A stretch of 10,925 nt of DNA from Thermofilum sp. (lineage in GTDB: Archaea > Thermoproteota > Thermoprotei > Thermofilales > Thermofilaceae), in NCBI GenBank assembly GCA_020832965.1, contig JAJHRM010000069.1, forward strand, positions 1 to 10,925, in the 5' to 3' direction. The notes beneath the pieces were generated by a model, which saw only the letters and a list, made by a program, of their open reading frames with translations, was not told the origin of the DNA and ran no database searches. The position numbers and the translations under genes were made by a program. Shown piece by piece: positions 2-10,045 of this stretch. Within the stretch, counting starts at the first letter, position 1; each line of letters starts with the position of its first letter.

Positions 2-673
2 AGCGCGGCCGGCATCCCCGCACCAAGCGGTACTGCAGTTAGCTGTGTTCTGAAGACCAAGTACCCCGACAAGGTGGTAATACCCATATTCATACTGAAC
101 TACAAGGGTCCCGTAGAGGTGGGAGCCCTAGCACTGGCTGCTGAAGCTGTAGGTTTGGATGGCATAGCAATGACTATGGGTGATGAGCCTAAATACGGGG
201 ACCCCCTAGGTCCAAAGTACTGGAAGAGGACGGAGGACGCCAGGGATTTCTTGAGGAAAGAGGTCAAGCTAAAGACCCTGAAGCTCGGATGCCTCCTATC
301 ACCGAGACCCTGGAGGGAGAGGTACGGCACAAAGGAATTTAGCGCGAGGGATATGGTTGAGAGAGTGAAGACGGGGTGGGACTTCGCGTTCTTCATGAGG
401 CTCACCCAGGAGACCCTGCCAGCACTTGCAGAGGTATCTAGAGAGCTCAAAAGCGCAAACATACCTCTATACACGTACTTCCTAATCGAGACCCCCCGCA
501 ACGTGGAGATATTGAGGAGGATTGGCTGGAGCCCCACAACAACGATCGACAAAGCTGTTGAGTTTGCTGAGAAGCTTGAAGGCCTAGTTGACGGAATCAT
601 AGCAACGTGCGCAGGGGATTACCAGGGAGACCTGGAGCTCTTAAAGGCGCTACAGAGGGTCAGGGGGAAGTAG
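2..673 (+). CDS. MetF-like methylenetetrahydropterin reductase (5'-truncated by window edge)
   Basis: The frame is open from the first bases, so the gene starts upstream and about 223 residues are visible. Sequence seen: an early GIPAPSGTAVS segment, then VVIPIFILNYKGP, then GLDGIAMTMGDEP, later FFMRLTQETLP. These line up in order with the TIM-barrel strands of methylenetetrahydrofolate reductase (MTHFR family: small-molecule pterin contact, HLTCRDRN strand, LALRGDPP strand, FFVTQ strand). The family reduces the methylene group on a reduced pterin to methyl using flavin and NAD(P)H or a partner protein. It is not the F420-dependent Mer (luciferase-like) family. An MtdB gene follows after 8 bp, so the likely substrate is methylene-tetrahydromethanopterin or a related archaeal pterin; that is inference. 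No MetV/zinc-domain partner is visible in the window. The family call is good; the exact cofactor and electron donor are unknown. Confidence 0.8.
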   Translation, partial: SAAGIPAPSGTAVSCVLKTKYPDKVVIPIFILNYKGPVEVGALALAAEAVGLDGIAMTMGDEPKYGDPLGPKYWKRTEDARDFLRKEVKLKTLKLGCLLSPRPWRERYGTKEFSARDMVERVKTGWDFAFFMRLTQETLPALAEVSRELKSANIPLYTYFLIETPRNVEILRRIGWSPTTTIDKAVEFAEKLEGLVDGIIATCAGDYQGDLELLKALQRVRGK

Positions 674-681
674 GTGGAACA

Positions 682-1599
682 GTGTCTGAGCTGAAGTTTA
701 GACCCGTATTCGCATTCCTCGACACCGACAAGCACGCAAGCCCATTCGACATACTCATGACGATAGACCTTGTACCCGACGTCGTAGTGCTCAAGTACGA
801 AAACGTAACCCCGGAAGACGTCGAGAAAATAGTCTACGATGCCCTGTTCCCCAGAGGTCCGAAGGGAGTAAAGTACACCAAGATCTTCGTCAACGGGAGC
901 AAACTGGAAACCGTAAACGCCATCGTCGAGAAGATAAAGAAGTGCATGTTCCCGCCGTTTGAACTCTCCGTGATCGTTGACCCAAGAGGCTCCTACACGA
1001 CGGCTAGTGCGGCAGTGGTAAAAACCCTCGAAGTGATGCAGAAACTTGGCTTAGGCACGATAGAGGGTAAAAACGCCACAATACTGGCCGGCACGGGTCC
1101 TGTGGGGGTTGCAGCTACATGGCTCTACGCAGCTGAGAGGGCCGCAAAGGTTACCGTAACCTCGAGAGAACTTGCAAGAGCTCAGAACGTAGCATCTAGG
1201 GTCAACGAGGAGCTAAAGACGGACGTTGTAAAGCCTTTCCAAGCCAGGACCCCGGAGGACGTGGGGAGGGCTATAGAGGATGCGGATATAGTCCTCGCTA
1301 CGGGCGCACCAGGAGTACAACTCTTACCGCTAAACATCCTGAAAGCGCATGGAAGAAAAGTGAAAGTGGTCGCAGACTGCAACGCAGTCCCACCCTACGG
1401 CGTAGAGGGTCTCGAACCGAAGTGGGATGGAAAGGAAGTTGTACCTGGGGTGTACGGGGTAGGCGCACTAGCCATAGGCACACTTAAAAACAAAATCGAG
1501 GCGGAGCTAATCAAGAAAGCCCTGCAGGAACCAAAGGGCATATTCGACTTCAGGGCAGCCTACGAAATAGGTAAAGCAATGCTCCCGCCCGCTAAGTAA
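682..1599 (+). CDS. mtdB: NAD(P)-dependent methylene-tetrahydromethanopterin dehydrogenase (MtdB type)
   Basis: The protein has 305 residues, close to the usual 285-300 of MtdA/MtdB. An N-terminal pterin-binding domain (about 1-100) opens with FAFLDTDKHASPFD, as in MtdB. It is followed by DPRGSYTTASA (100-110), matching the conserved DSNGSNTTAAA-type segment. A Rossmann domain carries AGTGPVG (136-142), and TSREL (160-164) sits after the second strand, which would suit NADP(H). The C-terminal GVGALAIGTLKNK matches the family's GALGIGGLK segment. It oxidises methylene-H4MPT to methenyl-H4MPT, or the reverse, in the cytoplasm. I chose the GTG at 682 over the upstream GTG at 607: it has GGTGG four bases ahead, starts right after the MetF-like stop, and gives the family-length N terminus. 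It is cotranscribed with the MetF-like gene. Confidence 0.93.
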   Translation: MSELKFRPVFAFLDTDKHASPFDILMTIDLVPDVVVLKYENVTPEDVEKIVYDALFPRGPKGVKYTKIFVNGSKLETVNAIVEKIKKCMFPPFELSVIVDPRGSYTTASAAVVKTLEVMQKLGLGTIEGKNATILAGTGPVGVAATWLYAAERAAKVTVTSRELARAQNVASRVNEELKTDVVKPFQARTPEDVGRAIEDADIVLATGAPGVQLLPLNILKAHGRKVKVVADCNAVPPYGVEGLEPKWDGKEVVPGVYGVGALAIGTLKNKIEAELIKKALQEPKGIFDFRAAYEIGKAMLPPAK

Positions 1600-1737: not shown

Positions 1738-1929
1738 CTAGGATTTCAGATAACCTATTGATAGGTAGTAATCAAGCAGATTTTCAGGAGTCGATGAAAG
1801 CAAGACGTCACTACCCTCTTTATCAGTCCCCCTAGCCTTAGAGCCGAATAGGTAAGCAACTAATACTCTCTGCCAATCAAGGTCATCATCAAATACCCTT
1901 CTTAATGCCTCTATAACCTCCTCCCGCAT
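1738..1929 (-). pseudogene. Fragment of MNT-type nucleotidyltransferase (MntA-antitoxin-like), broken at the active site
   Basis: The 63 codons from the ATG at 1927-1929 have GGTG a few bases upstream on the minus strand; an in-frame GTG sits at 1933-1935. The protein reads MREEVIEALRRVF, then LVAYLFGSKARGTDKEGSDV, the start of a minimal nucleotidyltransferase domain. The hallmark is GS-x(n)-SDxD, but here SDV runs into LLSSTPENLL, so the second catalytic aspartate and the remaining domain are missing. Intact MNT proteins are usually 95-140 residues and often pair with a HEPN toxin (type VII toxin-antitoxin). No HEPN gene is visible here. I infer a decayed remnant with an internal deletion after the SDV codons. 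Catalytic activity is very unlikely. Confidence 0.6.
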
Positions 1930-1942
1930 CTTCACACCATCC

Positions 1943-2084: not shown

Positions 2085-2098
2085 TAAATTTTTAATAC
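2085..2098 (+). promoter_or_regulatory. TATA-box promoter of the corrinoid protein remnant
   Basis: The AT-only core aaatttttaa lies about 40 bp before the chosen ATG at 2133. Transcription would start near 2117, leaving a 15-base leader that contains the ribosome binding site GGTGA (2122-2126). Confidence 0.5.
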
Positions 2099-2132
2099 TT
2101 TTGCTCTCTCCATATTATTGCTGGTGAAAGAC

Positions 2133-2378
2133 ATGTCTGCCTCCGAGGAGCTTGTAAGCGCCATTGTTAACCTTGATGAGAGGAGGGCTGTCGAGACGAC
2201 TAAGAGGCGTTTGGAGGCTGGCGAAGATCCTCTCAGAATATTGGAGGATTTGACTAAGGCTGCCAACGTTATTGGTGAGAAGTATGAGAGGGGTGAGCTC
2301 TTCATCGCCGACCTCGTTATGGCTGGCGAGATACTTAAGGAGGTTTCTGACCCCGTGAGAGCGCGCGCGCTAAGATAA
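2133..2378 (+). pseudogene. Truncated methyltransferase corrinoid protein (N-terminal cap domain only)
   Basis: The 81 codons match the helical cap domain of MtaC/MtbC/MttC-type corrinoid proteins: repeated short helices ending in the typical KYERGELFIADLVMAGEILKE pattern (K/R-F-E-x-G-x-x-F-I-P-x-L in the family). Intact proteins are about 210-220 residues, with a B12-binding Rossmann domain bearing DxHxxG after the cap. Here the frame leaves the family pattern after ILKEVSDP, crosses the (GC)5 tract at 2361-2370 and stops at 2376. The cobalamin-binding half is therefore absent, and the protein cannot carry corrinoid by the known mechanism. The ATG at 2133 has GGTGA six bases upstream; a TTG at 2118 is the alternative. 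Intact, it would have shuttled a methyl group from a substrate methyltransferase to a UroD-type methyltransferase, whose remnant follows. Confidence 0.75.
2364..2372 (-). repeat. TAGCGCGCG copy at the corrinoid/UroD junction
   Basis: The plus strand reads agcgcgcgcgct (2360-2371), a perfect palindrome and the longest CG alternation in the window. It lies precisely between the last corrinoid-protein residues and the first UroD-like residues. Confidence 0.6.
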
Positions 2379-2410
2379 CAGCATTCCAAGCTCAGCTCTT
2401 TACAGAACTT

Positions 2411-3061
2411 ATGAAGAAAGGCAATATAGCATTTCCATTGACAAATGCATATACTCCGGCAGATGTGATTGGGGACTTCCTCAGGCATCCGACAGGTGCC
2501 ATGCTAGATATCAGGAGATACCCAGAGGACTTTAAAATGGCGTGTGAAGTGCTTGTGGAGTATATTCTCAAGGTAGCTACAGCTGTACCACCAATGCCAC
2601 CACTCACACAGTTCTTCATACCGCTTCACCTCAATGAAATGCTACCCCCAAAGCTATACAATGAGTTTTACTGGCCTTACCTAAAGAAAATAACTGAGAC
2701 TCTTGTTGCAAAGGGCTATAAGGGGTTTATATTCTTTGAAGGGGATCACCTGCCTCATGTAGAAACGATACTCGAGCTACCGAAGGGCTGGGGCATCGCA
2801 TGGTTTGAGAGGCCCAGAGACTTCATAAAGGTTTGGGAAACATTAAAAGGACATACCACAGTAATGGGAGGAGTACCACCATCCCTGATTGCAGGTGGCA
2901 CTCCTGAGAAGATAGATGAATACATAAAGAATTTACTGAGCAAGATAAAGCCTGAAGGAGGCTTCATTTTATCACCTGGAGTAAATGAGCTGCCAGCTGG
3001 GACACCTGTAGCTAACGTAAGGGCATATATTAACGCAGCACTTAAGTATGGCGTATATTAG
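2411..3061 (+). pseudogene. UroD-family methyltransferase, N-terminally truncated (MtaA/MtbA-like)
   Basis: From the ATG at 2411 there are 216 residues, but the frame is open and family-like back to about 2378 (TAFQAQLFTELMKKG). Seen in order: YTPADVIGDFLR, FFEGDHLPHVETILELPKG, TTVMGGVPPSLIAGGTPEKI and GGFILSPGVNELPAGTP. These are strands of the uroporphyrinogen decarboxylase barrel as used by cobamide:coenzyme methyltransferases. The family normally has about 340 residues, so roughly the first 110-130 are missing. The zinc ligands of MtaA/MtbA (HxC and a later Cys in the APGC segment) are not here: GDHLPH and SPGVNE stand instead. So either the fragment is from a zinc-free UroD subfamily or it is inactive. 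It lies directly after the corrinoid cap and was probably once a separate downstream gene of the same methyltransferase operon. It may still be translated. Confidence 0.7.
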
Positions 3062-3143
3062 CGGGCGAAACCTAGCTCTAGAAGCCCTTGAGAGAAGTGC
3101 TCCCCGACGCCAGTTACCCGCACAAGATCCTGTGAACACAAAA

Positions 3144-3276: not shown

Positions 3277-4437
3277 CTAAAGAACATGAGTGAGATCGTA
3301 CACCATCCGGGTTGCGGGCAGGAGCATTGCTACCCTGTCTAAAATGCTATCTCCTGCGCGTGCTCTGCCGATTAGGATGGTGCGTGTAGAGCCCTCTACA
3401 TTTATGCTCCTCTCGTTAGCAAGTGCTGGAACGGCTCTGTCCAGCACAAGGTAGTAAGCGTAATCGCTCACCACTTCTCCCAGAAAGCATGGCTTACCTA
3501 GATCCTGGTGGCCACTCACAGAACTGACCAAGAATTCACCTAGCCGCGGGAAGACCTCGTAAATACCAACAATGGAGGTCGTAGCTCTCGGGTTAACCTC
3601 GATGACATGCATGCCTCCATCGCTCCACACAACATCTAAGCCAATATAGCCTCTAAGCGTGGGGTGGCACTCGAAGAGCTTGCTGAGAGCCGCCTCTGCC
3701 TCTCCCCTAAACGTGCTACTTCTGATGGGCAGCACTCCCCCGACGTACCTAAGCCTGCTACCATCTAGGGCTATCAGCTGCAAGTTTAAAGAGTAGAGCA
3801 GGTAACCACTCCTACCGTAGATAACTGACACGCTTCCATGCACACCACTAACATACTCCTGAACCAAGGCTCTACCACTCGGATCGCACTTCGCAGCCTC
3901 GCGCGCAAGCCGCACAGCGTCACCCTCGTCCTCAGCGAAGTAAACACACTCAGACCCAGCTAGAAGGGCTGGCTTTACTACGTATGGCGGGTTCAGCTCA
4001 CTCACGCACGCACGGTCAATAACCGGGCCCTTCACTAGCACGGTTTCCGGTGTTTTAACCCCGCATCTTTTAAGGGCAAGGAATGTGCTGAACTTGTCCG
4101 AGAAAGTCTCCACCAGTGGGTGTGGAGGACCCAAGAGACTGCTACCCACAATCTTAGATAACCTGATAAGCTCCAGTGGAGGGGCGACAAGCACTACCCA
4201 GTCGAAGCTCTCCCTCGCACGCTCTAAGCAGCGGTGGAAGTCACCCTCGTCACCTACCACCACTACTTTATTCCAGGGCACCTTGGGGGCTCTACTGCTA
4301 ATGGTTAAGTAGGCCTCACAGCCGGCCGTGCTCAGCGACCTGGCAAGCGTAATAGCCATAGCGTAGGCTTCTGGCAATAAGTCAAGGTAGCGGCTCTGAT
4401 ACACACTTAACACGTACTCAGACACAAGGATTTTCAC
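3277..4437 (-). CDS. mfnD: Tyramine--L-glutamate ligase, ATP-grasp (methanofuran biosynthesis)
   Basis: 386 residues, close to methanogen MfnD. MfnD joins the gamma-carboxyl of glutamate to tyramine with ATP, giving gamma-glutamyltyramine, the side chain precursor of methanofuran. The protein shows the ATP-grasp order: an N-terminal alpha/beta domain (1-110), SDKFSTFLALKRCGVKTPET (113-132), the nucleotide-binding lysine in PYVVKPALLAGSE (151-163), QEYVSG (193-198) with a downstream Gly-rich strand, and the Mg-binding signature HVIEVNPRATTSIVG (277-291), with E280 and N282. The INPRxTTS form of the last motif is typical of MfnD. A GTG start is chosen, with GGTG six bases upstream. It lies 34 bp after the HisA-like gene and is probably cotranscribed with it. 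The enzyme acts in the cytoplasm. Confidence 0.88.
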   Translation of the reverse strand: MKILVSEYVLSVYQSRYLDLLPEAYAMAITLARSLSTAGCEAYLTISSRAPKVPWNKVVVVGDEGDFHRCLERARESFDWVVLVAPPLELIRLSKIVGSSLLGPPHPLVETFSDKFSTFLALKRCGVKTPETVLVKGPVIDRACVSELNPPYVVKPALLAGSECVYFAEDEGDAVRLAREAAKCDPSGRALVQEYVSGVHGSVSVIYGRSGYLLYSLNLQLIALDGSRLRYVGGVLPIRSSTFRGEAEAALSKLFECHPTLRGYIGLDVVWSDGGMHVIEVNPRATTSIVGIYEVFPRLGEFLVSSVSGHQDLGKPCFLGEVVSDYAYYLVLDRAVPALANERSINVEGSTRTILIGRARAGDSILDRVAMLLPATRMVYDLTHVL

Positions 4438-4471
4438 AGCTTACACCGCAAAAGTTTGACCCCAGAGAACT

Positions 4472-5149
4472 TCAATATAGTGGTCTGCGTATGACCCCCT
4501 TATGTATCGCTGTGGCCACCAGGACCCCGGCCACCCCCAGGCTTTTCAAATACAGTACATCGTTTTCATCCCTGACGCCTCCCCCCACGACGAGTTTTCC
4601 GGGGAAGCACTCAGCCAGCTTCGAGGCAACAACCCTATTCACCCCAGACTCCGTACCAACTCTGCTTAGATCGATGACAAGGATCTTCTTCAACTCCGCT
4701 GCTTTGAAAAGCTCGAGGACTTTCTCTACCTTTTCACTAGCGTTTCTGAACGTTACCTCGTCTCCACGCATATCCAAGCTCACCGCTCTCCCACTGAGAA
4801 AACCCACCTCTCCAGGGTACTCCACGTACTCTGTTCCGATAACGTACGTCACTTCATTGGAATCAGCGAGGCTTAAGCCTCTCCTCCCAACGTCAGCTAG
4901 CACTCTAAAATTCAGCGCCACCGCCGTGCGAACTACGCTGCTGTTGTCCCCCCTACCCATAATAGCGTCCAAGTCAGCTATGTAGACAGACGTGAAACCC
5001 ATGCTTTTGAGACTGCTAAGAATGGGGTACGGGTGAGGCACACCCGACAACACGCTACCCTTTAGGGGTTTGTACTCCTCTCTGCGGCCCGCAACTGCGT
5101 GGACAACTAAACCATCCATAACGTCTAGGACGGGAATCACCTCCACCAA
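4472..5149 (-). CDS. HisA/HisF-family TIM-barrel protein of the methanofuran cluster, function unknown
   Basis: 225 residues from a TTG start. The protein begins VEVIPVLDVMDGLVVHAVAG, then VYIADLDAIMG (55-65), VIDLSRVGTESGVN (158-171), VVGGGVRDENDV (187-198) and GVLVATAIHKG (208-218). These match HisA/HisF strands: the acid after strand 1 (D9), the acid after strand 5 (D160) and the two phosphate-binding loops are kept. It belongs to the HisA-related group found beside C1 and methanofuran genes in methanogens and methylotrophs. The lack of any his gene nearby argues against histidine synthesis. A longer open frame reaches 5470, but it would run through the TATA box (5183-5190) and overlap the start of the divergent mfnF. 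GGTGAG six bases before the TTG fixes the start; GTG at 5146 is an alternative. Its substrate is probably a phosphorylated small molecule (inference). Confidence 0.78.
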   Translation of the reverse strand: MVEVIPVLDVMDGLVVHAVAGRREEYKPLKGSVLSGVPHPYPILSSLKSMGFTSVYIADLDAIMGRGDNSSVVRTAVALNFRVLADVGRRGLSLADSNEVTYVIGTEYVEYPGEVGFLSGRAVSLDMRGDEVTFRNASEKVEKVLELFKAAELKKILVIDLSRVGTESGVNRVVASKLAECFPGKLVVGGGVRDENDVLYLKSLGVAGVLVATAIHKGVIRRPLY

Positions 5150-5182
5150 GCAATGCTCACCAAGATTTGCTACTGCAATGAC

Positions 5183-5190
5183 TTTTAAAT
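5183..5190 (-). promoter_or_regulatory. TATA box of the hisA-like/mfnD operon
   Basis: TTTTAAAT on plus reads ATTTAAAA on minus. It lies about 38 bp ahead of the TTG start, predicting a leader of roughly 12 bases that holds the GGTGAG ribosome site (5156-5161). It excludes the upstream ATG codons as starts. Confidence 0.55.
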
Positions 5191-5255
5191 GCATAGATCT
5201 TCTCGGCATTTCGGTAGCAGCGGGGAACTGCGCGTGGATACGCTTAAATCCCTGC

Positions 5256-5261
5256 TTTAAA
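5256..5261 (+). promoter_or_regulatory. TATA box of the mfnF-mfnE operon
   Basis: TTTAAA lies 42 bp before the mfnF ATG, predicting a leader of about 18 bases. A similar TTAAA lies at 5244-5248. With the opposite box at 5183-5190 this makes a compact divergent promoter of 153 bp between the two methanofuran operons. Confidence 0.5.
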
Positions 5262-5302
5262 CTGCTTACGGGATGGAAGCTGCGCCAGCTTGATGATTCG
5301 TA

Positions 5303-6388
5303 ATGAATATACTGGGACTCGACATAGGGGGAGCTAACGTTAAAGCGGTTAACACCATGCTCACTCCCAGCGGGAAGGGTGTAAACCTTACTGGAGTAGT
5401 GCGTAGGTATCACCCGCTGTGGCTGCGGGGAGTAGAGTCTTTGAGACTCCTCCTCAAGGAAATTAAGCAAGAGTTCTCCCTAAAGCCAGGGGAGTACTAT
5501 GTGGGGGTAACGATGACCGCGGAGCTGTCCGACGTGTTTAAAACGAAGCATGAGGGGGTAAAGACAATAGTAGAGGTTGTAGACGACGTGTACGGTGATG
5601 CTAGGGGGGTGCACTACGTATCTGCAGACATGGAGCTGGTGAGTTCTCCCGAGGCCTCAAGAAGCTACCTGAAAATTGCCGCAGCTAACTGGGCTGCCAG
5701 CGCGTGGCTACTGAAGCACAAGTGCCTAGAGTGGGGTATGCGCGACGCGCTATTCATAGACATCGGCAGCACGACGACAACAATAATACCTATGGTTGAT
5801 TGCAGCGTGAGGGTTAGAGGCTACACTGATCCCGAGAAACTGGTCTGCGGCGAACTTGTCTACACGGGTGTGCTTAGAGGCAACGTAGCCGCGCTAGTGG
5901 ACCGGGTTCCATACAAGGGTTTCTATGCTCGAGTGTCTTCAGAGAGGTTCTCTCTGATGGGGGACGTCCACCTACTGCTGGGACACATCAGTAGCGAGGA
6001 ATACACCACTGAAACAGCTGACGGGAGGGGGACGACCCTGGAGGAGGCTGTGCAGAGGATAGCCCGCGTGCCCTGCGCTGACTCCGACATGGTCAGCTTT
6101 GAGGAAGCGGTGGAGATGGCGCGGTACATATACGAGAGGCAGGTCTTCGCAGTGTTTGAGGCGTTAATGCAGGTTAGGTCGTGGCTTGCATCGCAAGGTG
6201 TTAGGCTGGACGAGTTCACTGCCATAACTGCTGGCTTAGGCGAGTTCTTGGCGGCGGAGGCAAGCAGGAGGGCTGGTTTCAGAAGGATAGTGAGCATCAA
6301 CGAGCTTGTAGGCGAGAAAGTGGCAAGCGTGCTGCCATCCTACGCCTCAGCACTAATGGTGCTCAACAGGGTGGTTAGCCGTGGGTAA
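5303..6388 (+). CDS. mfnF: MfnF: gamma-glutamyltyramine/aminomethylfuran condensing enzyme (ASKHA fold)
   Basis: 361 residues; methanogen MfnF is about 330-350. MfnF couples (5-(aminomethyl)furan-3-yl)methyl diphosphate with gamma-glutamyltyramine, releasing diphosphate and forming the core of methanofuran. Seen: the actin/hexokinase-type phosphate-1 motif LGLDIGGANVKA (4-15), the family-specific TMTAELSDVFKTKHEGV (70-86), a second Gly-rich motif FIDIGSTTTTIIPM (151-164), GELVYTGVLRGN (183-194), GDVHLLLGHIS (220-230) and TADGRG (238-243). All match the hydantoinase A-like MfnF family. The ATG at 5303 directly precedes DIGGAN, as in homologues, and no strong ribosome site is visible. The stop overlaps the mfnE start by 8 bases, so translation is probably coupled. 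Confidence 0.9.
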   Translation: MNILGLDIGGANVKAVNTMLTPSGKGVNLTGVVRRYHPLWLRGVESLRLLLKEIKQEFSLKPGEYYVGVTMTAELSDVFKTKHEGVKTIVEVVDDVYGDARGVHYVSADMELVSSPEASRSYLKIAAANWAASAWLLKHKCLEWGMRDALFIDIGSTTTTIIPMVDCSVRVRGYTDPEKLVCGELVYTGVLRGNVAALVDRVPYKGFYARVSSERFSLMGDVHLLLGHISSEEYTTETADGRGTTLEEAVQRIARVPCADSDMVSFEEAVEMARYIYERQVFAVFEALMQVRSWLASQGVRLDEFTAITAGLGEFLAAEASRRAGFRRIVSINELVGEKVASVLPSYASALMVLNRVVSRG

Positions 6389-7037
6389 GCTAGTAGTGCT
6401 CAAGTTATCCGGGCACTTAATCAACCACGGAGAATTTATTCAAAGCACGCTCAGCGAGTTGAAGTCCCTAGCTGGGGTGGCTAGATTCGTGCTGGTACCG
6501 GGCGGCAGCGTATTTGCGGATTTCGTGAGAGAGCTGCAGGGAAGAATGCGTTTCAGCGATGACACCGCCCACTGGCTGGCAATCAAGGCCATGGAAATGT
6601 ATGGAACATATCTTTTGAGCTTTGACGAGTCGAACATGCTCCTAGAGGCATACGACCTCCCCGAGGTCCACGAAGCTCTGAGTAAAGGCAAAATACCAAT
6701 CCTTATGCCCTACAGGGTTATGAGAGCCTCCAATAAGCTTCCACACAGCTGGAACGTAACAAGCGACTCAATATCAATATACGTGGGGGAAATCTTGAAG
6801 GCAAGCATGGTGATACTAGCTAAACCCGTCGATGGAATACTGGACAGCCGGGGCAACATGGTTCAAAAAATGAGCATCTTGGATCTGGAGCGGTCAGGCA
6901 CAAACGTCATCGACCCATACGCCGTGGAGCTTCTACGCAATGCTAAACTGCAAATAGCAATATACAACATGCTTAAACCGTCAGTGCTGAGATACATAGT
7001 GAACGGGGAACCCGGAGACTACACACTCATCGAGTGA
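6381..7037 (+). CDS. mfnE: [5-(Aminomethyl)furan-3-yl]methyl phosphate kinase
   Basis: 218 residues, an amino acid kinase fold. MfnE phosphorylates aminomethylfuran-methyl phosphate to the diphosphate used by MfnF, made by the gene just upstream. Motifs: VLKLSGHLI (6-14), the Gly-rich loop LVPGGSVFAD (38-47), MRFSDDTAHWLAIKAM (56-71), the MfnE-type PHSWNVTSDSIS (121-132) that holds substrate and nucleotide, and LAKPVDGI (146-153). Family members have DxLPxSWDVTSDSI at this place; here the residue after W is N rather than D. A GTG start lies within the end of mfnF, with GGGTGG (6369-6374) six bases upstream, which decides the start. It is cotranscribed with mfnF. The 109-bp gap after it is convergent with mfnB. 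Confidence 0.92.
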   Translation: MGKLVVLKLSGHLINHGEFIQSTLSELKSLAGVARFVLVPGGSVFADFVRELQGRMRFSDDTAHWLAIKAMEMYGTYLLSFDESNMLLEAYDLPEVHEALSKGKIPILMPYRVMRASNKLPHSWNVTSDSISIYVGEILKASMVILAKPVDGILDSRGNMVQKMSILDLERSGTNVIDPYAVELLRNAKLQIAIYNMLKPSVLRYIVNGEPGDYTLIE

Positions 7038-7087
7038 TGCTCCGGGGGCTTAAATGGGCTGGCTCAGCGTTTGTCACTAGAACCTGA

Positions 7088-7114
7088 AGGCGCATGATGC
7101 TGGGAGAAGCGCCT
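7088..7114. repeat. Short inverted repeat in mfnE/mfnB convergent gap
   Basis: AGGCGC (7088-7093) pairs with GCGCCT (7109-7114) around a 15-base loop, followed by AAAAA. It may be a weak 3' structure for either transcript. Nothing else is recognisable in 7038-7146. Confidence 0.25.
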
Positions 7115-7146
7115 AAAAATGCCCACAAGTTGAGTAGCGTTTCTGT

Positions 7147-7869
7147 TTAGCGCGCGTAACTCCTGATTGTTTCCTTCATTTCACTTACGAGCTTCTCCGA
7201 GACTACTCCACCTCTACCTCCAGTACAGGCGGCACCCCTAAATCCGACCACGTCAAATCCCAGCTCAATAGCGTCGAGGATGTGTTGCCTCTTTAAGCTC
7301 CCGGCTAGCGCGGCTAGCAGATTATTCCCGTGAGCTTCCTTAGCGAAGCTTTCCAGGTAGCTTCTAGGCAGAAAGTCGAACGTCGTCCTACCGTCCTTCA
7401 CATACGTGTCGATCATCACCACGTCAGCCCCGACATCCCTGGCTACCTCTACTACCTTTAAAGGCTCTATTGCCCCAGCTCGTGAAAAGTCGGCATACCC
7501 CACCAGAACCAGCTTAGTACCGCTAAACGACTCCAAAACCCCAGAGACCCTTAATCCCACCCCTCTAGCATCCTCGACTGACCGCACAGCGAGACCTATC
7601 TTAAAGTAGCTAACGCCAAGCGTCGCGGCAGCATAAGCAACATACTCCATGTACGGGTCAACACCCTCAACATCCCCACCCGCAGAGCTGACCTCCACCC
7701 CGGCGATACCCATCCCCCTGATCCTACCCAATACCTCCCTCAAAACGCTGTAATCGGGTAAACCGAGGCTACCCCTCGAAGGATCTTTTACATCAACAAT
7801 ATCAGCCCCACCACGTATAACGCTATCAAGCTCGGAAGGATGCTTTATTGATATTAGCAGCTTAATCAA
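7147..7869 (-). CDS. mfnB: (5-Formylfuran-3-yl)methyl phosphate synthase (4-HFC-P synthase)
   Basis: 240 residues from the TTG start; MJ1099 has about 235. MfnB condenses two glyceraldehyde 3-phosphate molecules into 4-(hydroxymethyl)-2-furancarboxaldehyde phosphate, the first furan intermediate of methanofuran. The TIM barrel shows GGADIVDVKDPSRGSLG (20-36), with D26 and the Schiff-base-type lysine K28, FKIGL (89-93) with K90, GYADFSRAG (124-132), IDTYVKDGRTTFDF (153-166) with D154 and K158, LLAALAGSL (184-192) and FRGAACTGG (210-218). These are the catalytic positions known in MfnB. The TTG at 7867-7869 is preferred over the GTG at 7878: it has GGGTG six bases upstream and gives the MIKLLIS start seen in the family. 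It is monocistronic, with its own TATA box. The 3' end overlaps a TAGCGCGCG element. Confidence 0.93.
   Translation of the reverse strand: MIKLLISIKHPSELDSVIRGGADIVDVKDPSRGSLGLPDYSVLREVLGRIRGMGIAGVEVSSAGGDVEGVDPYMEYVAYAAATLGVSYFKIGLAVRSVEDARGVGLRVSGVLESFSGTKLVLVGYADFSRAGAIEPLKVVEVARDVGADVVMIDTYVKDGRTTFDFLPRSYLESFAKEAHGNNLLAALAGSLKRQHILDAIELGFDVVGFRGAACTGGRGGVVSEKLVSEMKETIRSYAR
7148..7156 (+). repeat. TAGCGCGCG copy overlapping the mfnB stop
   Basis: It spans the last two codons and the stop of mfnB (Ala-Arg-stop read from gcgcgc). It is one of four copies in the window. Confidence 0.6.
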
Positions 7870-7907
7870 AACCAGCACCCAGGGATATGCTTGACCATGA
7901 TTACTAC

Positions 7908-7931: not shown

Positions 7932-7943
7932 TGGCGCGCGCTA
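7932..7943 (-). repeat. GC-alternating element, inverted copy of 1943-1954
   Basis: The complement reads tagcgcgcgcca, identical over 12 bases to 1943-1954. It lies in the 140-bp gap upstream of the mfnB TATA box; the rest of 7944-8009 shows nothing recognisable. Confidence 0.6.
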
Positions 7944-8009
7944 GTTAAGAAGGAATGAAAGTCTCTCCCTCTGAAGCGAAAAGCCAGCAATCCAAGCGTG
8001 GGATGCAAC

Positions 8010-9104
8010 TTAGGAAGAATTGGAGGAAGAGCTGAGCCACTTTGCGGGTTTGATATAGTCCTTACCTCCAGCATCAAAAGTTCCTATTGTCACCTGGCAG
8101 TATGTCTCTCCTAGCCTCAGATCCTCTACCTCCTCTAGCTTGCCGTAGGCGACAACCTCTTCTCCGGGCTCGGCGAGATCTATGTATAAGCCCTCGTAGC
8201 TAACGATCCTTGTCACCGGTCTGGGCGGAGACGGCCCCTCCAGTACTTTAACGCTGTCGACTGCGTACACGGCCGGCATGAAGATGGACTCGCTGGCGTC
8301 CGTTACCCTGGCTTTCACCTTTACGAGACCAAGTGGTCTGTGAATTTTGTCTTCCCACTTCTCACCTACTTCGCTCTCCAACTTGACCGGGTGGATGGAG
8401 AATGGTCTTCCCTTGTAGATAGCTCTATTCCACTTACACTTGCTGTACAGGGTCATAGCCTCTTCTAAGCTTAGCTCATGGTGAGATATTATCTCCCTAC
8501 TCCACTCCTCCAGCACCTCCCCCTTAGGCAGGGAGATGTGCGGTTTTTTCCCATTGAGCAGCAGCTCTTTCAAGGCATCTCTAACAATCCAGCTGCTGCG
8601 CTGACCATACACGACGAGGTCTATATCCGAGTACTTTAAATTATGCATCTTTAGGAGAATGGAGCCCGTTATACCAAAGCTGTCTAAACCTACCTGGGTC
8701 TCATCCGATAGTTCCTCAACAAGCTCTAGCGCTAGTCTCTCTAGCTCGTCACGAGGTGAGCTGAGCATCTCTCGTAGCCTCTCTTCGGGCTTAAAGTGGG
8801 TCTTAACCTTGGATCTGGGTACTTCTACTAACTCGATCGACCTGTAGTTGTCGTAGGCTATGTATTCTGGATGGTGTTTCTTGAGGTAATCCATGGTGTG
8901 TTTAACTCCTATCGCACTGTAGTACGGTAGAATCCTCCCGTACATGACCCCATCCCTGCTCCACTTAGTCCTAATATTTGAAGAGAAGTGAGGAATGTAC
9001 TTCAGGTACGCCAATACCCTGTCGACGGGGTGAACATTGCCAATTACACAGAAAATCATTCCCTCAGCAGACTCAACGAAGTCTCTATCCCTGAACCCCC
9101 TCAT
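8010..9104 (-). CDS. Archaeal nucleotidyltransferase-fold protein A, function unknown
   Basis: 364 residues. It belongs to a broadly archaeal group annotated as predicted nucleotidyltransferase. The N-terminal domain opens with FRDRDFVESAEGMIFCVIG (4-22), then HPVDRVLAYLKYIP (25-38) and FKPEERL (104-110). The nucleotidyltransferase motif is GITGSILLKMHNLKYSDIDLVVYG (about 144-167), with the GS and the SDxD metal carboxylates. The expected third acid strand reads GRPFSIHPVKLE (232-243), with no acid at the equivalent place. A C-terminal beta-rich domain (about 275-355) ends in a serine-rich tail, SSSSNSS. The substrate (RNA end, protein or small molecule) cannot be told. The ATG start opens the family-typical FRDRDFVE, so it is well supported. 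It is divergent from and distantly paralogous to the next gene, with 77 bp between them. Confidence 0.75.
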   Translation of the reverse strand: MRGFRDRDFVESAEGMIFCVIGNVHPVDRVLAYLKYIPHFSSNIRTKWSRDGVMYGRILPYYSAIGVKHTMDYLKKHHPEYIAYDNYRSIELVEVPRSKVKTHFKPEERLREMLSSPRDELERLALELVEELSDETQVGLDSFGITGSILLKMHNLKYSDIDLVVYGQRSSWIVRDALKELLLNGKKPHISLPKGEVLEEWSREIISHHELSLEEAMTLYSKCKWNRAIYKGRPFSIHPVKLESEVGEKWEDKIHRPLGLVKVKARVTDASESIFMPAVYAVDSVKVLEGPSPPRPVTRIVSYEGLYIDLAEPGEEVVAYGKLEEVEDLRLGETYCQVTIGTFDAGGKDYIKPAKWLSSSSNSS

Positions 9105-9181: not shown

Positions 9182-10045
9182 ATGATAGAGGGGTACCTGG
9201 TCAAGTACGGAGGTTACCTCTGGCTTGTAAAGGGGTGCGAGCACTTTGATGAATACTTAATTGCTTACCCCCGCTACGACGCTACCAATCAAGTTAAAAT
9301 TAAGGATACTGACAGGGCGCTTGGTGTAGCCAGGAAGCTGGGGGTAGTGAGGTATGATGAGTGTTTGAAGCTGGAGGTTCCACTGGTAAGGAAGGACGAG
9401 ATAGAGGAAGTGCTCGACCCCTTTTACAGGGAGTCCTGGCCGCAGCTACCACGGGAAATCTCAGAAATCCTCGACGGGCTGGATCCTGGTGAGCTGGGGG
9501 AAGTAGGGTTAACCGGGAGCTACTTAGCATCAGTAATGCTGAGGAACATTAAGCCGAGGGATGTAGACTTGGTTATCAAAGATGAGGGCGTTGGGTTTAA
9601 AATTTATAGGAAGCTCAGGGATCTGAGGGAAAGAGGGGTCGCTAAACCCCTAAGTGTCATTGAAGAGCATGAAGGGACAGACCGGGAGACTAGGGTAAAG
9701 CTGCTGCGGGACAGAGTGCTGGAGGGAGTGCTAGGCAACATCGTTTACAGCATACGAATAGTATCTTGCAAGAGGAGCGCGGAACCCGTCTGCTTGGAGA
9801 ACGCTGAATTCCTCAGCGATGAGCTTGTCATCGTGGAAGAGGTTTCTCCAATAGTGATGCCTTACATCTACATTGCCACGAGTAGTAAACTGGGGAGAAT
9901 TCCAGTGAGAAGTCTGCGGATGAGGTACAGCGAGGTACCCGTAGGGACAAAGCTCATGGTGTCGAATTGCAGGCTAGAGCGTTATGCTGATGGCTCGGCT
10001 TGCGTCAGCCTGGATGGTAGAGAATGCGTTGTTAAGTTAAAGTAG
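9182..10045 (+). CDS. Archaeal nucleotidyltransferase-fold protein B, paralogue of the divergent neighbour
   Basis: 287 residues. The motif GLTGSYLASVMLRNIKPRDVDLVI (109-132) is the same GxTGS plus xDxDL nucleotidyltransferase signature as in the divergent gene, with R-D-V-D in place of S-D-I-D. The N terminus also aligns: GGYLWLVKGCEHFDEYLIAY here against EGMIFCVIGNVHPVDRVLAY there. So does the C-terminal beta domain after a shared MPxxY. The third acid strand again lacks an acid: GNIVYSIRIVSC (185-196). It is shorter because the linker after the N-terminal domain is reduced. The ATG at 9182 is chosen; another ATG at 9178 is out of frame. With no room for a ribosome site after the predicted transcription start, the mRNA is probably leaderless. 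Function unknown. Confidence 0.72.
   Translation: MIEGYLVKYGGYLWLVKGCEHFDEYLIAYPRYDATNQVKIKDTDRALGVARKLGVVRYDECLKLEVPLVRKDEIEEVLDPFYRESWPQLPREISEILDGLDPGELGEVGLTGSYLASVMLRNIKPRDVDLVIKDEGVGFKIYRKLRDLRERGVAKPLSVIEEHEGTDRETRVKLLRDRVLEGVLGNIVYSIRIVSCKRSAEPVCLENAEFLSDELVIVEEVSPIVMPYIYIATSSKLGRIPVRSLRMRYSEVPVGTKLMVSNCRLERYADGSACVSLDGRECVVKLK

What the first reader, a model, noticed from the sequence alone, without database searches (positions are those of the whole stretch)
2133..3061. Deletion scar joining a corrinoid protein cap to a UroD-type methyltransferase
Corrinoid-protein similarity ends around 2350 and UroD-like similarity begins around 2378, in a different frame. The B12-binding domain of the first gene and about 110-130 residues of the second are missing. 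The longest alternating GC tract in the window (2361-2370) lies exactly at the join. This fits one deletion in an ancestral methyltransferase operon (corrinoid protein followed by methyltransferase), perhaps through the GC repeat. The promoter in front still looks intact, so a cap-only protein and a truncated barrel could still be made.
Basis: partly seen in the sequence, partly recalled or inferred. Interest (0 to 1): 0.7.

Follow-up and report, generated by a model that had tools for sequence, protein, structure and literature searches.

The report
Freshly broken methyl-transfer gene pair
In an uncultured hot-spring archaeon, two neighbouring genes that together strip methyl groups from small molecules appear to have been cut down by one missing stretch of about 1,000 bases; the same gene pair is broken in different ways in relatives, so this is most likely an ordinary, though repeated and here very recent, gene loss.

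Summary
A B12-binding cap (2133-2360) abuts, out of frame, the C-terminal half of a UroD-type methyltransferase (2375-3058). Relatives carry the intact pair: corrinoid protein, then UroD protein. The span is 1312-1326 bases in 8 intact operons, 311 here, so 1001-1015 bases are missing: the whole corrinoid-binding domain and about 200 UroD residues, not 110-130. The family is MtoC-MtoB/CdmC-CdmB (O-demethylase or haloalkane methyltransferase). Two relatives are broken otherwise: Ignisphaera aggregans (frameshift, two stops) and a Desulfurococcaceae genome (a larger deletion; same join in two metagenome proteins). Those relics changed 5-10 of 65 invariant UroD-tail residues; the window changed none, and its UroD branch shows no relaxation (omega 0.025). 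So the break is very recent, or an artefact, or the pieces are still used. A complication: third-codon G+C steps at the join (cap host-like 0.58, UroD part 0.39), leaving open that the halves had different histories. The GC tract matches neither side in relatives and may be junction filler. Reads could not be checked. Mostly ordinary gene decay; modest interest.

The parts
2089..2097 (+). TATA-like element in front of the cap gene
   Evidence: TTTTTAATA, about 35-45 bases before the ATG; several intact relatives have TATA-like stretches in the same region (upstream sequences printed; judged by eye)
2123..2127 (+). Shine-Dalgarno-like GGTGA
   Evidence: read from the sequence; by eye
2133..2378 (+). 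remnant of a corrinoid protein (MtoC/CdmC-like): cap domain only, 81 codons plus TAA
   Evidence: PF02607 E 6.3e-17; 78% identical over 78 residues to the intact corrinoid proteins P0105/P0107; also listed as an 81-aa protein of a 72,391-base contig (P0083)
2361..2374 (+). the join, including the alternating GC tract 2361-2370
   Evidence: cap homology clear to 2360, UroD homology from 2375; the bases between match neither side of 8 intact relatives
2375..3061 (+). remnant of a UroD-type methyltransferase (MtoB/CdmB-like): C-terminal 227-228 codons plus stop; first ATG 2411
   Evidence: PF01208 profile 159-345 of 346; 92% identical to the copy in L001; aligns to CdmB 9rui residues 207-429 of 429
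1738..1935 (-). short MntA-like nucleotidyltransferase fragment (65 aa) upstream, itself probably truncated
   Evidence: NF047752 E 8.7e-05 over profile 6-27 of 106, 22.4 bits against a cut-off of 60
697..1599 (+). context: methylene-H4MPT dehydrogenase (Mtd-type; the listed ORF starts at 607)
   Evidence: PF09176 E 8.9e-22; 86% identical in G001
3277..7878 (.). context: methanofuran-biosynthesis genes MfnD(-), HisA/F-like(-), MfnF(+), MfnE(+), MfnB(-); in L075, L077 and L080 the corrinoid-UroD operon or relic also lies near HisA/F-like and other Mfn genes

Best explanation
This is the remnant of an mtoC-mtoB-like operon (corrinoid protein, then UroD-type methyltransferase 1) that lost one internal stretch of about 1.0 kb very recently. 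The join (2361-2374) ends the corrinoid protein after its cap, removing the corrinoid-binding domain, and starts the methyltransferase in the middle of a long helix before the last six barrel strands, removing the N-terminal region that in CdmB includes the extensions forming dimer contact and substrate channels. Neither product could carry or methylate a corrinoid, so the system is dead at this locus. Shown here: homology, colinearity, missing length, other breaks in relatives, no decay yet. Inferred: that it was one deletion event, its mechanism (microhomology or filler joining), and loss of function.
For: Domain matches. Of 25 related loci, 16 have a cap start 1.1-1.3 kb before the matched UroD on the same strand; L001 and L010 have a corrinoid C-terminus before UroD at a contig end. 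Cap ATG to the NAY codon is 1312-1326 bases in 8 intact operons, 311 here. Mfn genes near the operon in 3 of 10 UroD-bearing stretches (L075, L077, L080). Other breaks: G013, whose single contig of 1,875,953 bases equals the published size of I. aggregans, with a frameshifted cap and 2 stops in UroD; G011/L021 plus P0034 and P0086 with another join. No decay in the window: 0 of 65 invariant tail residues changed against 5, 8 and 10 in the G013, G011 and P0034 relics and 0-3 in 9 intact copies (for G011 and P0034 one of the changes is the residue at their join); omega on the window's UroD branch 0.025, background 0.052, 95% upper bound between 0.05 and 0.06. Predicted intact fold (mean pLDDT 94.1): the break falls in helix 184-213 and six strands of three or more residues lie after it.
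Against: GC3 differs sharply between the two pieces (Fisher p 0.006), not expected of one operon that aged together. Absence of decay is what an assembly error or continued use would also give. No second contig with this join was seen, and the window's genome is not held. In 7 of 10 UroD-bearing stretches no Mfn gene was found nearby, so the site is not conserved in all relatives.
Confidence: 0.57

Rival explanations
1. The join unites two histories: a long-resident cap remnant with host-like codon use and a UroD gene (or its C-terminal part) that arrived more recently from an AT-richer donor, brought together by recombination rather than by one deletion in one operon.
For: Synonymous GC3: cap 0.58 (at the 40th percentile of 2153 overlapping host pieces of its length), UroD part 0.39, below all 913 overlapping 200-codon host pieces (minimum 0.54). 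K/(K+R) 0.36 against 0.74, though host genes range 0.31-0.72. The G001 UroD (92% identical) has GC3 0.43-0.46 while the one other gene compared there, mtd, has 0.29. Rank order of relatives differs: cap nearest P0105/P0107 and G014, UroD nearest G001, G019, L002; the G001 cap and the UroD partners of P0105/P0107 are unknown.
Against: One of 10 intact operons (G014) shows a cap-minus-UroD GC3 step as large (0.22); cap trees are poorly resolved; cap-versus-UroD identities of the window's pairs lie within -2.1 to +1.4 sd of the fit to the other pairs; order, strand and spacing are those of one operon.
Confidence: 0.22
2. The join is an assembly error or a minority variant, and the organism has the intact operon.
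For: Neither fragment shows decay; the join is seen on one contig only; reads unavailable.
Against: No repeat of 12 bases or more with a second copy in the window lies at the join, the junction has its own 10-base tract absent from both sides in relatives, and the contig is long (72,391 bases if P0083 is this contig).
Confidence: 0.14
3. The short genes are functional as they are (a cap-only protein and a truncated barrel), kept by selection.
For: Both frames open; UroD omega 0.024-0.025 and omega = 1 rejected (p about 1e-8); a 195-aa open cap-UroD fusion exists elsewhere (P0034); a cap-only 88-aa protein, P0084, is listed on a 939-base contig (context not examined).
Against: The same pair of short genes was not seen in a relative; the analogous fusion P0034 and its kin are decaying (10 and 8 of 65 invariant residues changed; P0086 is only 120 aa); the cofactor domain and the N-terminal region are missing; a branch-wide omega mostly records time before the break.
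Confidence: 0.07

Closest known systems
MtoC-MtoB, archaeal aryl O-demethylase (Methermicoccus shengliensis, Archaeoglobus fulgidus AF_0006-AF_0007)
   Same: gene order corrinoid protein, UroD-type MT1, then MFS transporter in 3 of 5 relatives whose next gene was identified (L002, G019, G001; not L075 or L076); two of the genomes found here (accession roots QNVF01 = L003, JAAOZJ01 = L005) are named as mto carriers by Welte et al. 2021 (PMC8359953, passages)
   Different: in the window the pair is reduced to a cap and a C-terminal piece, and no MFS gene follows within the window; substrate of the intact relatives untested; their MT2 was not identified
CdmC-CdmB chloromethane methyltransferase of Acetobacterium dehalogenans (PDB 9rui, 9rul, 9ruo)
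   Same: the only PDB sequence at E <= 0.001 for the intact relative (E 2.5e-63 over residues 24-427) and for the window fragment (E 3.8e-42)
   Different: the window fragment aligns to CdmB 207-429 only; it lacks the N-terminal part with the extensions between the first three strands that form dimer contact and channels (PMC13222342, section 8)
Ignisphaera aggregans (G013) copy of the same operon
   Same: same gene pair, broken
   Different: full length, broken by a frameshift and two stops, not by a deletion
Desulfurococcaceae Bin S23 relic (L021/L080) and P0034/P0086
   Same: cap joined to a UroD C-terminus by a deletion
   Different: another, larger deletion (only the last 111 UroD residues remain), with clear decay

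Membership tests
MtoCB/CdmCB-type corrinoid methyltransferase system | corrinoid protein with cap and corrinoid-binding (DxHxxG, motif recalled) domain | tested here: not met
   only PF02607 found above its cut-off; relatives carry GDIHDIG
MtoCB/CdmCB-type corrinoid methyltransferase system | full-length UroD-fold MT1 (about 425 aa) | tested here: not met
   profile 159-345 of 346 only; L001-L012 copies 425-449 aa by first start (L008 and L012 included)
MtoCB/CdmCB-type corrinoid methyltransferase system | descent from such an operon | tested here: met
   78% (cap) and 92% (UroD part) identity to intact members, order and strand conserved
MtoCB/CdmCB-type corrinoid methyltransferase system | methyl transfer from methoxyaromatics or haloalkanes | not testable with these tools
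   no assay; substrate of the relatives unknown
deletion-scarred relic (pseudogene) | intact homologues exist and a lesion removes essential parts | tested here: met
deletion-scarred relic (pseudogene) | relaxed selection after the break | tested here: inconclusive
   no relaxation seen (omega 0.025, 0 of 65 tail invariants changed); fits only a very recent break
deletion-scarred relic (pseudogene) | join supported by reads | not testable with these tools
   no reads held
functional short genes | same pair of short genes conserved in relatives | tested here: inconclusive
   none seen among 25 loci or 214 genomes; but the protein lists (82, 3 and 42 rows) include short UroD-only and cap-only proteins (P0084, P0085) whose surroundings could not be read

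The most novel reading that the evidence does not exclude
The cap and the C-terminal UroD half are still made and selected after the break: hyperthermophilic archaea at this locus repeatedly reduce an MtoCB pair to 'cap plus half-barrel', one lineage even fusing them in one open frame (P0034), as small proteins with a new non-catalytic role (for example binding the intact paralogous corrinoid proteins or their activase). The fresh, undecayed pieces here would be such a product caught early, perhaps assembled from pieces of different origin.
Probability: 0.05. Interest if true: 0.55.

Novelty: new member of a known kind. Interest (0 to 1): 0.3.

Why it matters
It suggests that an O-demethylase/dehalogenase-type entry point to the methyl branch of the H4MPT pathway is being lost repeatedly in Ignisphaera-like hyperthermophiles (point lesions in I. 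aggregans, an older shared deletion in another lineage, a fresh one here). It warns that cap-only or half-UroD hits in hot-spring metagenomes are not evidence for methoxydotrophy, and it gives a graded series of decay stages of one operon.

Tried and rejected
Deletion through a GC repeat present at both ends: not supported by the relatives at hand, none of which has GCGCGC at either end; the window's own ancestor is unknown. The simplest shared bases are AAGA (cap ...CTAAGAG in G019; UroD ...AAAAGATA in G001), seen by eye, too short to prove anything.

Cap codon model: synonymous sites saturated (branch lengths up to 20), so its omega values were discarded; only the statement that the window's cap breaks none of 22 invariant positions among 9 relatives was kept.

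The codon model of the UroD part used 11 sequences and 10 (G013 left out; its two stops were treated as missing). Not used: L007-L009 and L011 (indels), L010 (translated, not tried), L012 and the more distant loci L013-L025. In one search the L007 row was misparsed and G013 had no cap motif; both were dropped, leaving 8. The GC3 comparison used 10 intact operons. The identity fit left out P0034.

A possible gene tail after the UroD stop (3084-3135) was searched for and matched nothing convincing. Sister-taxon question: neighbours give mixed answers (Mtd 86% and CitG 72% nearest G001, the 364-aa gene 75% nearest G010, MfnF 50-59% in the six of seven genomes hit), so the organism was not placed beyond the order of the Ignisphaera relatives. 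The pterin-binding family PF00809, a possible MT2 marker, hit 8 of 10 relatives, mostly weakly, and none was assigned as MT2.

Literature: one listing for 'pseudogene, corrinoid, uroporphyrinogen decarboxylase, archaea' gave one bacterial paper; the listings (12 of 12 papers; 12 of 147 shown) had no title or abstract start about broken mtoCB in Ignisphaera. 'Ignisphaera' does not occur in the main text of PMC8630106, PMC8359953, PMC13222342 or PMC10989822. A wider absence in print is not claimed.

Full report
What is there. The ORF 2118/2133-2378 is a B12-binding cap (PF02607, E 6.3e-17) with no corrinoid-binding domain, and the frame 2375-3061 is the C-terminal half of a UroD-type protein (PF01208, profile 159-345 of 346, E 1.1e-18). 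They are in different frames; the UroD frame is open from about 2351 but its homology begins at 2375-2378 and its first ATG is 2411.

Intact relatives. A scan of genome contigs with the UroD part gave 25 loci. Of these, 16 have a cap start 1.1-1.3 kb upstream of the matched UroD on the same strand (L002-L009, L011, L013, L017, L018, L020, L022, L024, L025); L001 and L010 begin inside the corrinoid gene at a contig end; L012 and L023 show no cap; L014-L016 show such a pair for a second UroD copy but not for the matched one; L019 has a cap further away; L021 is itself broken. Near relatives have a corrinoid protein of about 215 aa followed by a UroD protein of 425-449 aa by first start codon (L001-L012). 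From the cap ATG to the NAY codon of UroD, 8 intact operons measure 1312-1326 bases and the window 311, so 1001-1015 bases are missing.

What the intact system is. The only PDB sequence at E <= 0.001 is CdmB, the chloromethane methyltransferase of Acetobacterium dehalogenans (9rui; E 2.5e-63 for the intact L002 protein, 3.8e-42 for the window part). Bernhardt et al. 2026 (PMC13222342; outline, sections 8 and 9 and passages read) place CdmB nearest the archaeal O-demethylase MtoB. Welte et al. 2021 (PMC8359953; passages) name the genomes behind L003 and L005 as mtoABC carriers and give the A. fulgidus order MtoC, MtoB, MFS, MtoA, MtoD. In L002, G019 and G001 an MFS gene follows UroD; in G014 (L075) and G018 (L076) another gene does. 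The activase family PF14574 is present in 10 of 10 relatives searched. The substrate of these relatives is unknown.

The site. Among 10 UroD-bearing stretches compared, 3 (L075 and L077 intact, L080 broken) have HisA/F-like and methanofuran genes nearby, as in the window, where MfnD, a HisA/F-like gene, MfnF, MfnE and MfnB follow. In the other 7 no Mfn gene was found in the stretch held, some of which are short contigs. So the neighbourhood is shared with some relatives only, and gene orientation has changed (HisA/F-like is on the other strand here).

Other broken copies. In the order-wide search 12 of 214 genomes have a UroD match at E <= 1e-20; 10 of them hold a copy or piece at least 60% identical, of which 2 are broken. 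G013, a single contig of 1,875,953 bases, the published size of Ignisphaera aggregans (PMC3035270, passages), has the full-length operon with a frameshift in the cap and 2 stops in UroD. G011 (L021/L080) has a cap with several lesions joined to the last 111 UroD residues; P0034 (195 aa, open, 691-kb contig) and P0086 (120 aa, 36-kb contig) show the same join. The window's join is a different one. P0085 (57-aa cap, 3 contigs), P0084 (88-aa cap, 939-base contig) and L024, whose corrinoid frame stops at 162 aa against 213 in the similar L013, may be further breaks; not followed.

How old the break is. Over the last 111 UroD residues, 65 positions are invariant in 9 intact copies; the window changes 0, intact copies 0-3 (leave-one-out, 65-68 positions), the relics G013 5, G011 8, P0034 10; one change each in G011 and P0034 is the residue at their own join. 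Over 205 codons the window changes 1 of 126 invariant positions against 8 in G013 and 0-5 in intact copies. A branch codon model gives omega 0.025 on the window branch, background 0.052, with 2 delta lnL 2.63 at 0.05 and 4.24 at 0.06; omega = 1 is rejected (p about 1e-8). The same model does not separate G013 from background either (omega 0.080, p 0.26; omega = 1 rejected, p 4e-6), so a low branch omega by itself is a weak test of recent decay; the invariant-site counts carry more weight. If neutral since the break, at most about 2-3% of the branch can have passed (my arithmetic: 4.1 changes expected at 2%, 1 seen). So the break is very recent, or not real, or the pieces are still selected.

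A point against the simple story. Synonymous GC3 is 0.58 in the cap, ordinary for this contig, and 0.39 in the UroD part, below all 913 overlapping 200-codon host pieces (minimum 0.54); Fisher p 0.006. The near-identical UroD of G001 (GC3 0.43-0.46) also differs from the one other G001 gene measured, mtd (0.29). In 10 intact operons the cap-minus-UroD step is 0.10 or less in 9 and 0.22 in G014. The UroD gene may therefore have been imported, with or without its own cap; trees of the 78-residue cap cannot tell.

The GC tract. Close intact corrinoid proteins read ...SDLVRPKLKELG where the window reads ...SDPVRARALR-stop; the tract 2361-2370 stands where relatives have the PK (or EK) codons and matches neither end of the relatives compared. 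GCGCGC occurs 11 times (overlapping) in the window against 2.0 +/- 1.5 expected (0 of 200 shuffles reached 11), at six separate sites: three between genes, one at the end of MfnB, one at the scar, one inside MfnD. Filler, slippage, or a repeated palindrome of this genome are all open.

Structure. The intact L002 protein is predicted with mean pLDDT 94.1. The break falls in helix 184-213. Six strands of three or more residues follow it (221-223, 278-283, 315-320, 339-343, 361-366, 396-400); everything before it is gone, including the region where CdmB has the extensions between its first three strands that form dimer contact and channels (the mapping onto CdmB is my inference from the alignment). 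Loss of function is an inference.

Verdict. A real join as far as sequence can tell; most likely a very recent 1.0-kb deletion in an MtoCB/CdmCB-type operon, one of at least three different losses in this archaeal group. Ordinary as a mechanism, useful as a series.

Noticed in passing
window 1628, 1945, 2361, 3901, 7150, 7934: GCGCGC palindromes are more frequent than expected (11 overlapping matches at six sites against 2.0) and five of the six sites are between genes, at a gene end or at the scar; 1942-1954 and 7932-7944 are perfect 13-base inverted copies; only 15 of 88 loci fetched by then have any.
   Followed up: partly
window 1738-1935 (-): 65-aa MntA-like nucleotidyltransferase fragment between two GCGCGC sites; looks truncated.
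   Followed up: partly
window 3084-3135 (+): GC-rich stretch right after the UroD stop whose frame ends like a protein C-terminus (LREVLPDASYPHKIL-stop); no match found.
   Followed up: partly
window 2-673 (+): 223-aa open-ended ORF before Mtd with no Pfam or NCBIfam match but 82% identical in G001 next to its Mtd; resembles a methylene-tetrahydropterin reductase by eye only.
   Followed up: no
window 9182-10045 (+) and 8010-9104 (-): Neighbouring genes with no or weak family match (nucleotidyltransferase-like by eye); the 364-aa one has a match of 58-75% identity in 10 of 10 relatives.
   Followed up: no
L078 and L079 (G009 C43 and C57, contig starts): Two corrinoid cap genes with different N-termini but identical sequence from the DPQAV motif on; both contigs end at the same cap residue, an assembly fork or a recombinant pair.
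   Followed up: no
L024 6910-7422: Corrinoid frame of a Bathyarchaeota genome stops at 162 aa, while the similar L013 has 213 aa before its UroD gene: another possible break of the same gene pair, or a sequence error.
   Followed up: no
G001 (L001, L032): UroD GC3 0.43-0.46 against 0.29 in its mtd: the methyltransferase may be imported there as well (one gene compared).
   Followed up: partly
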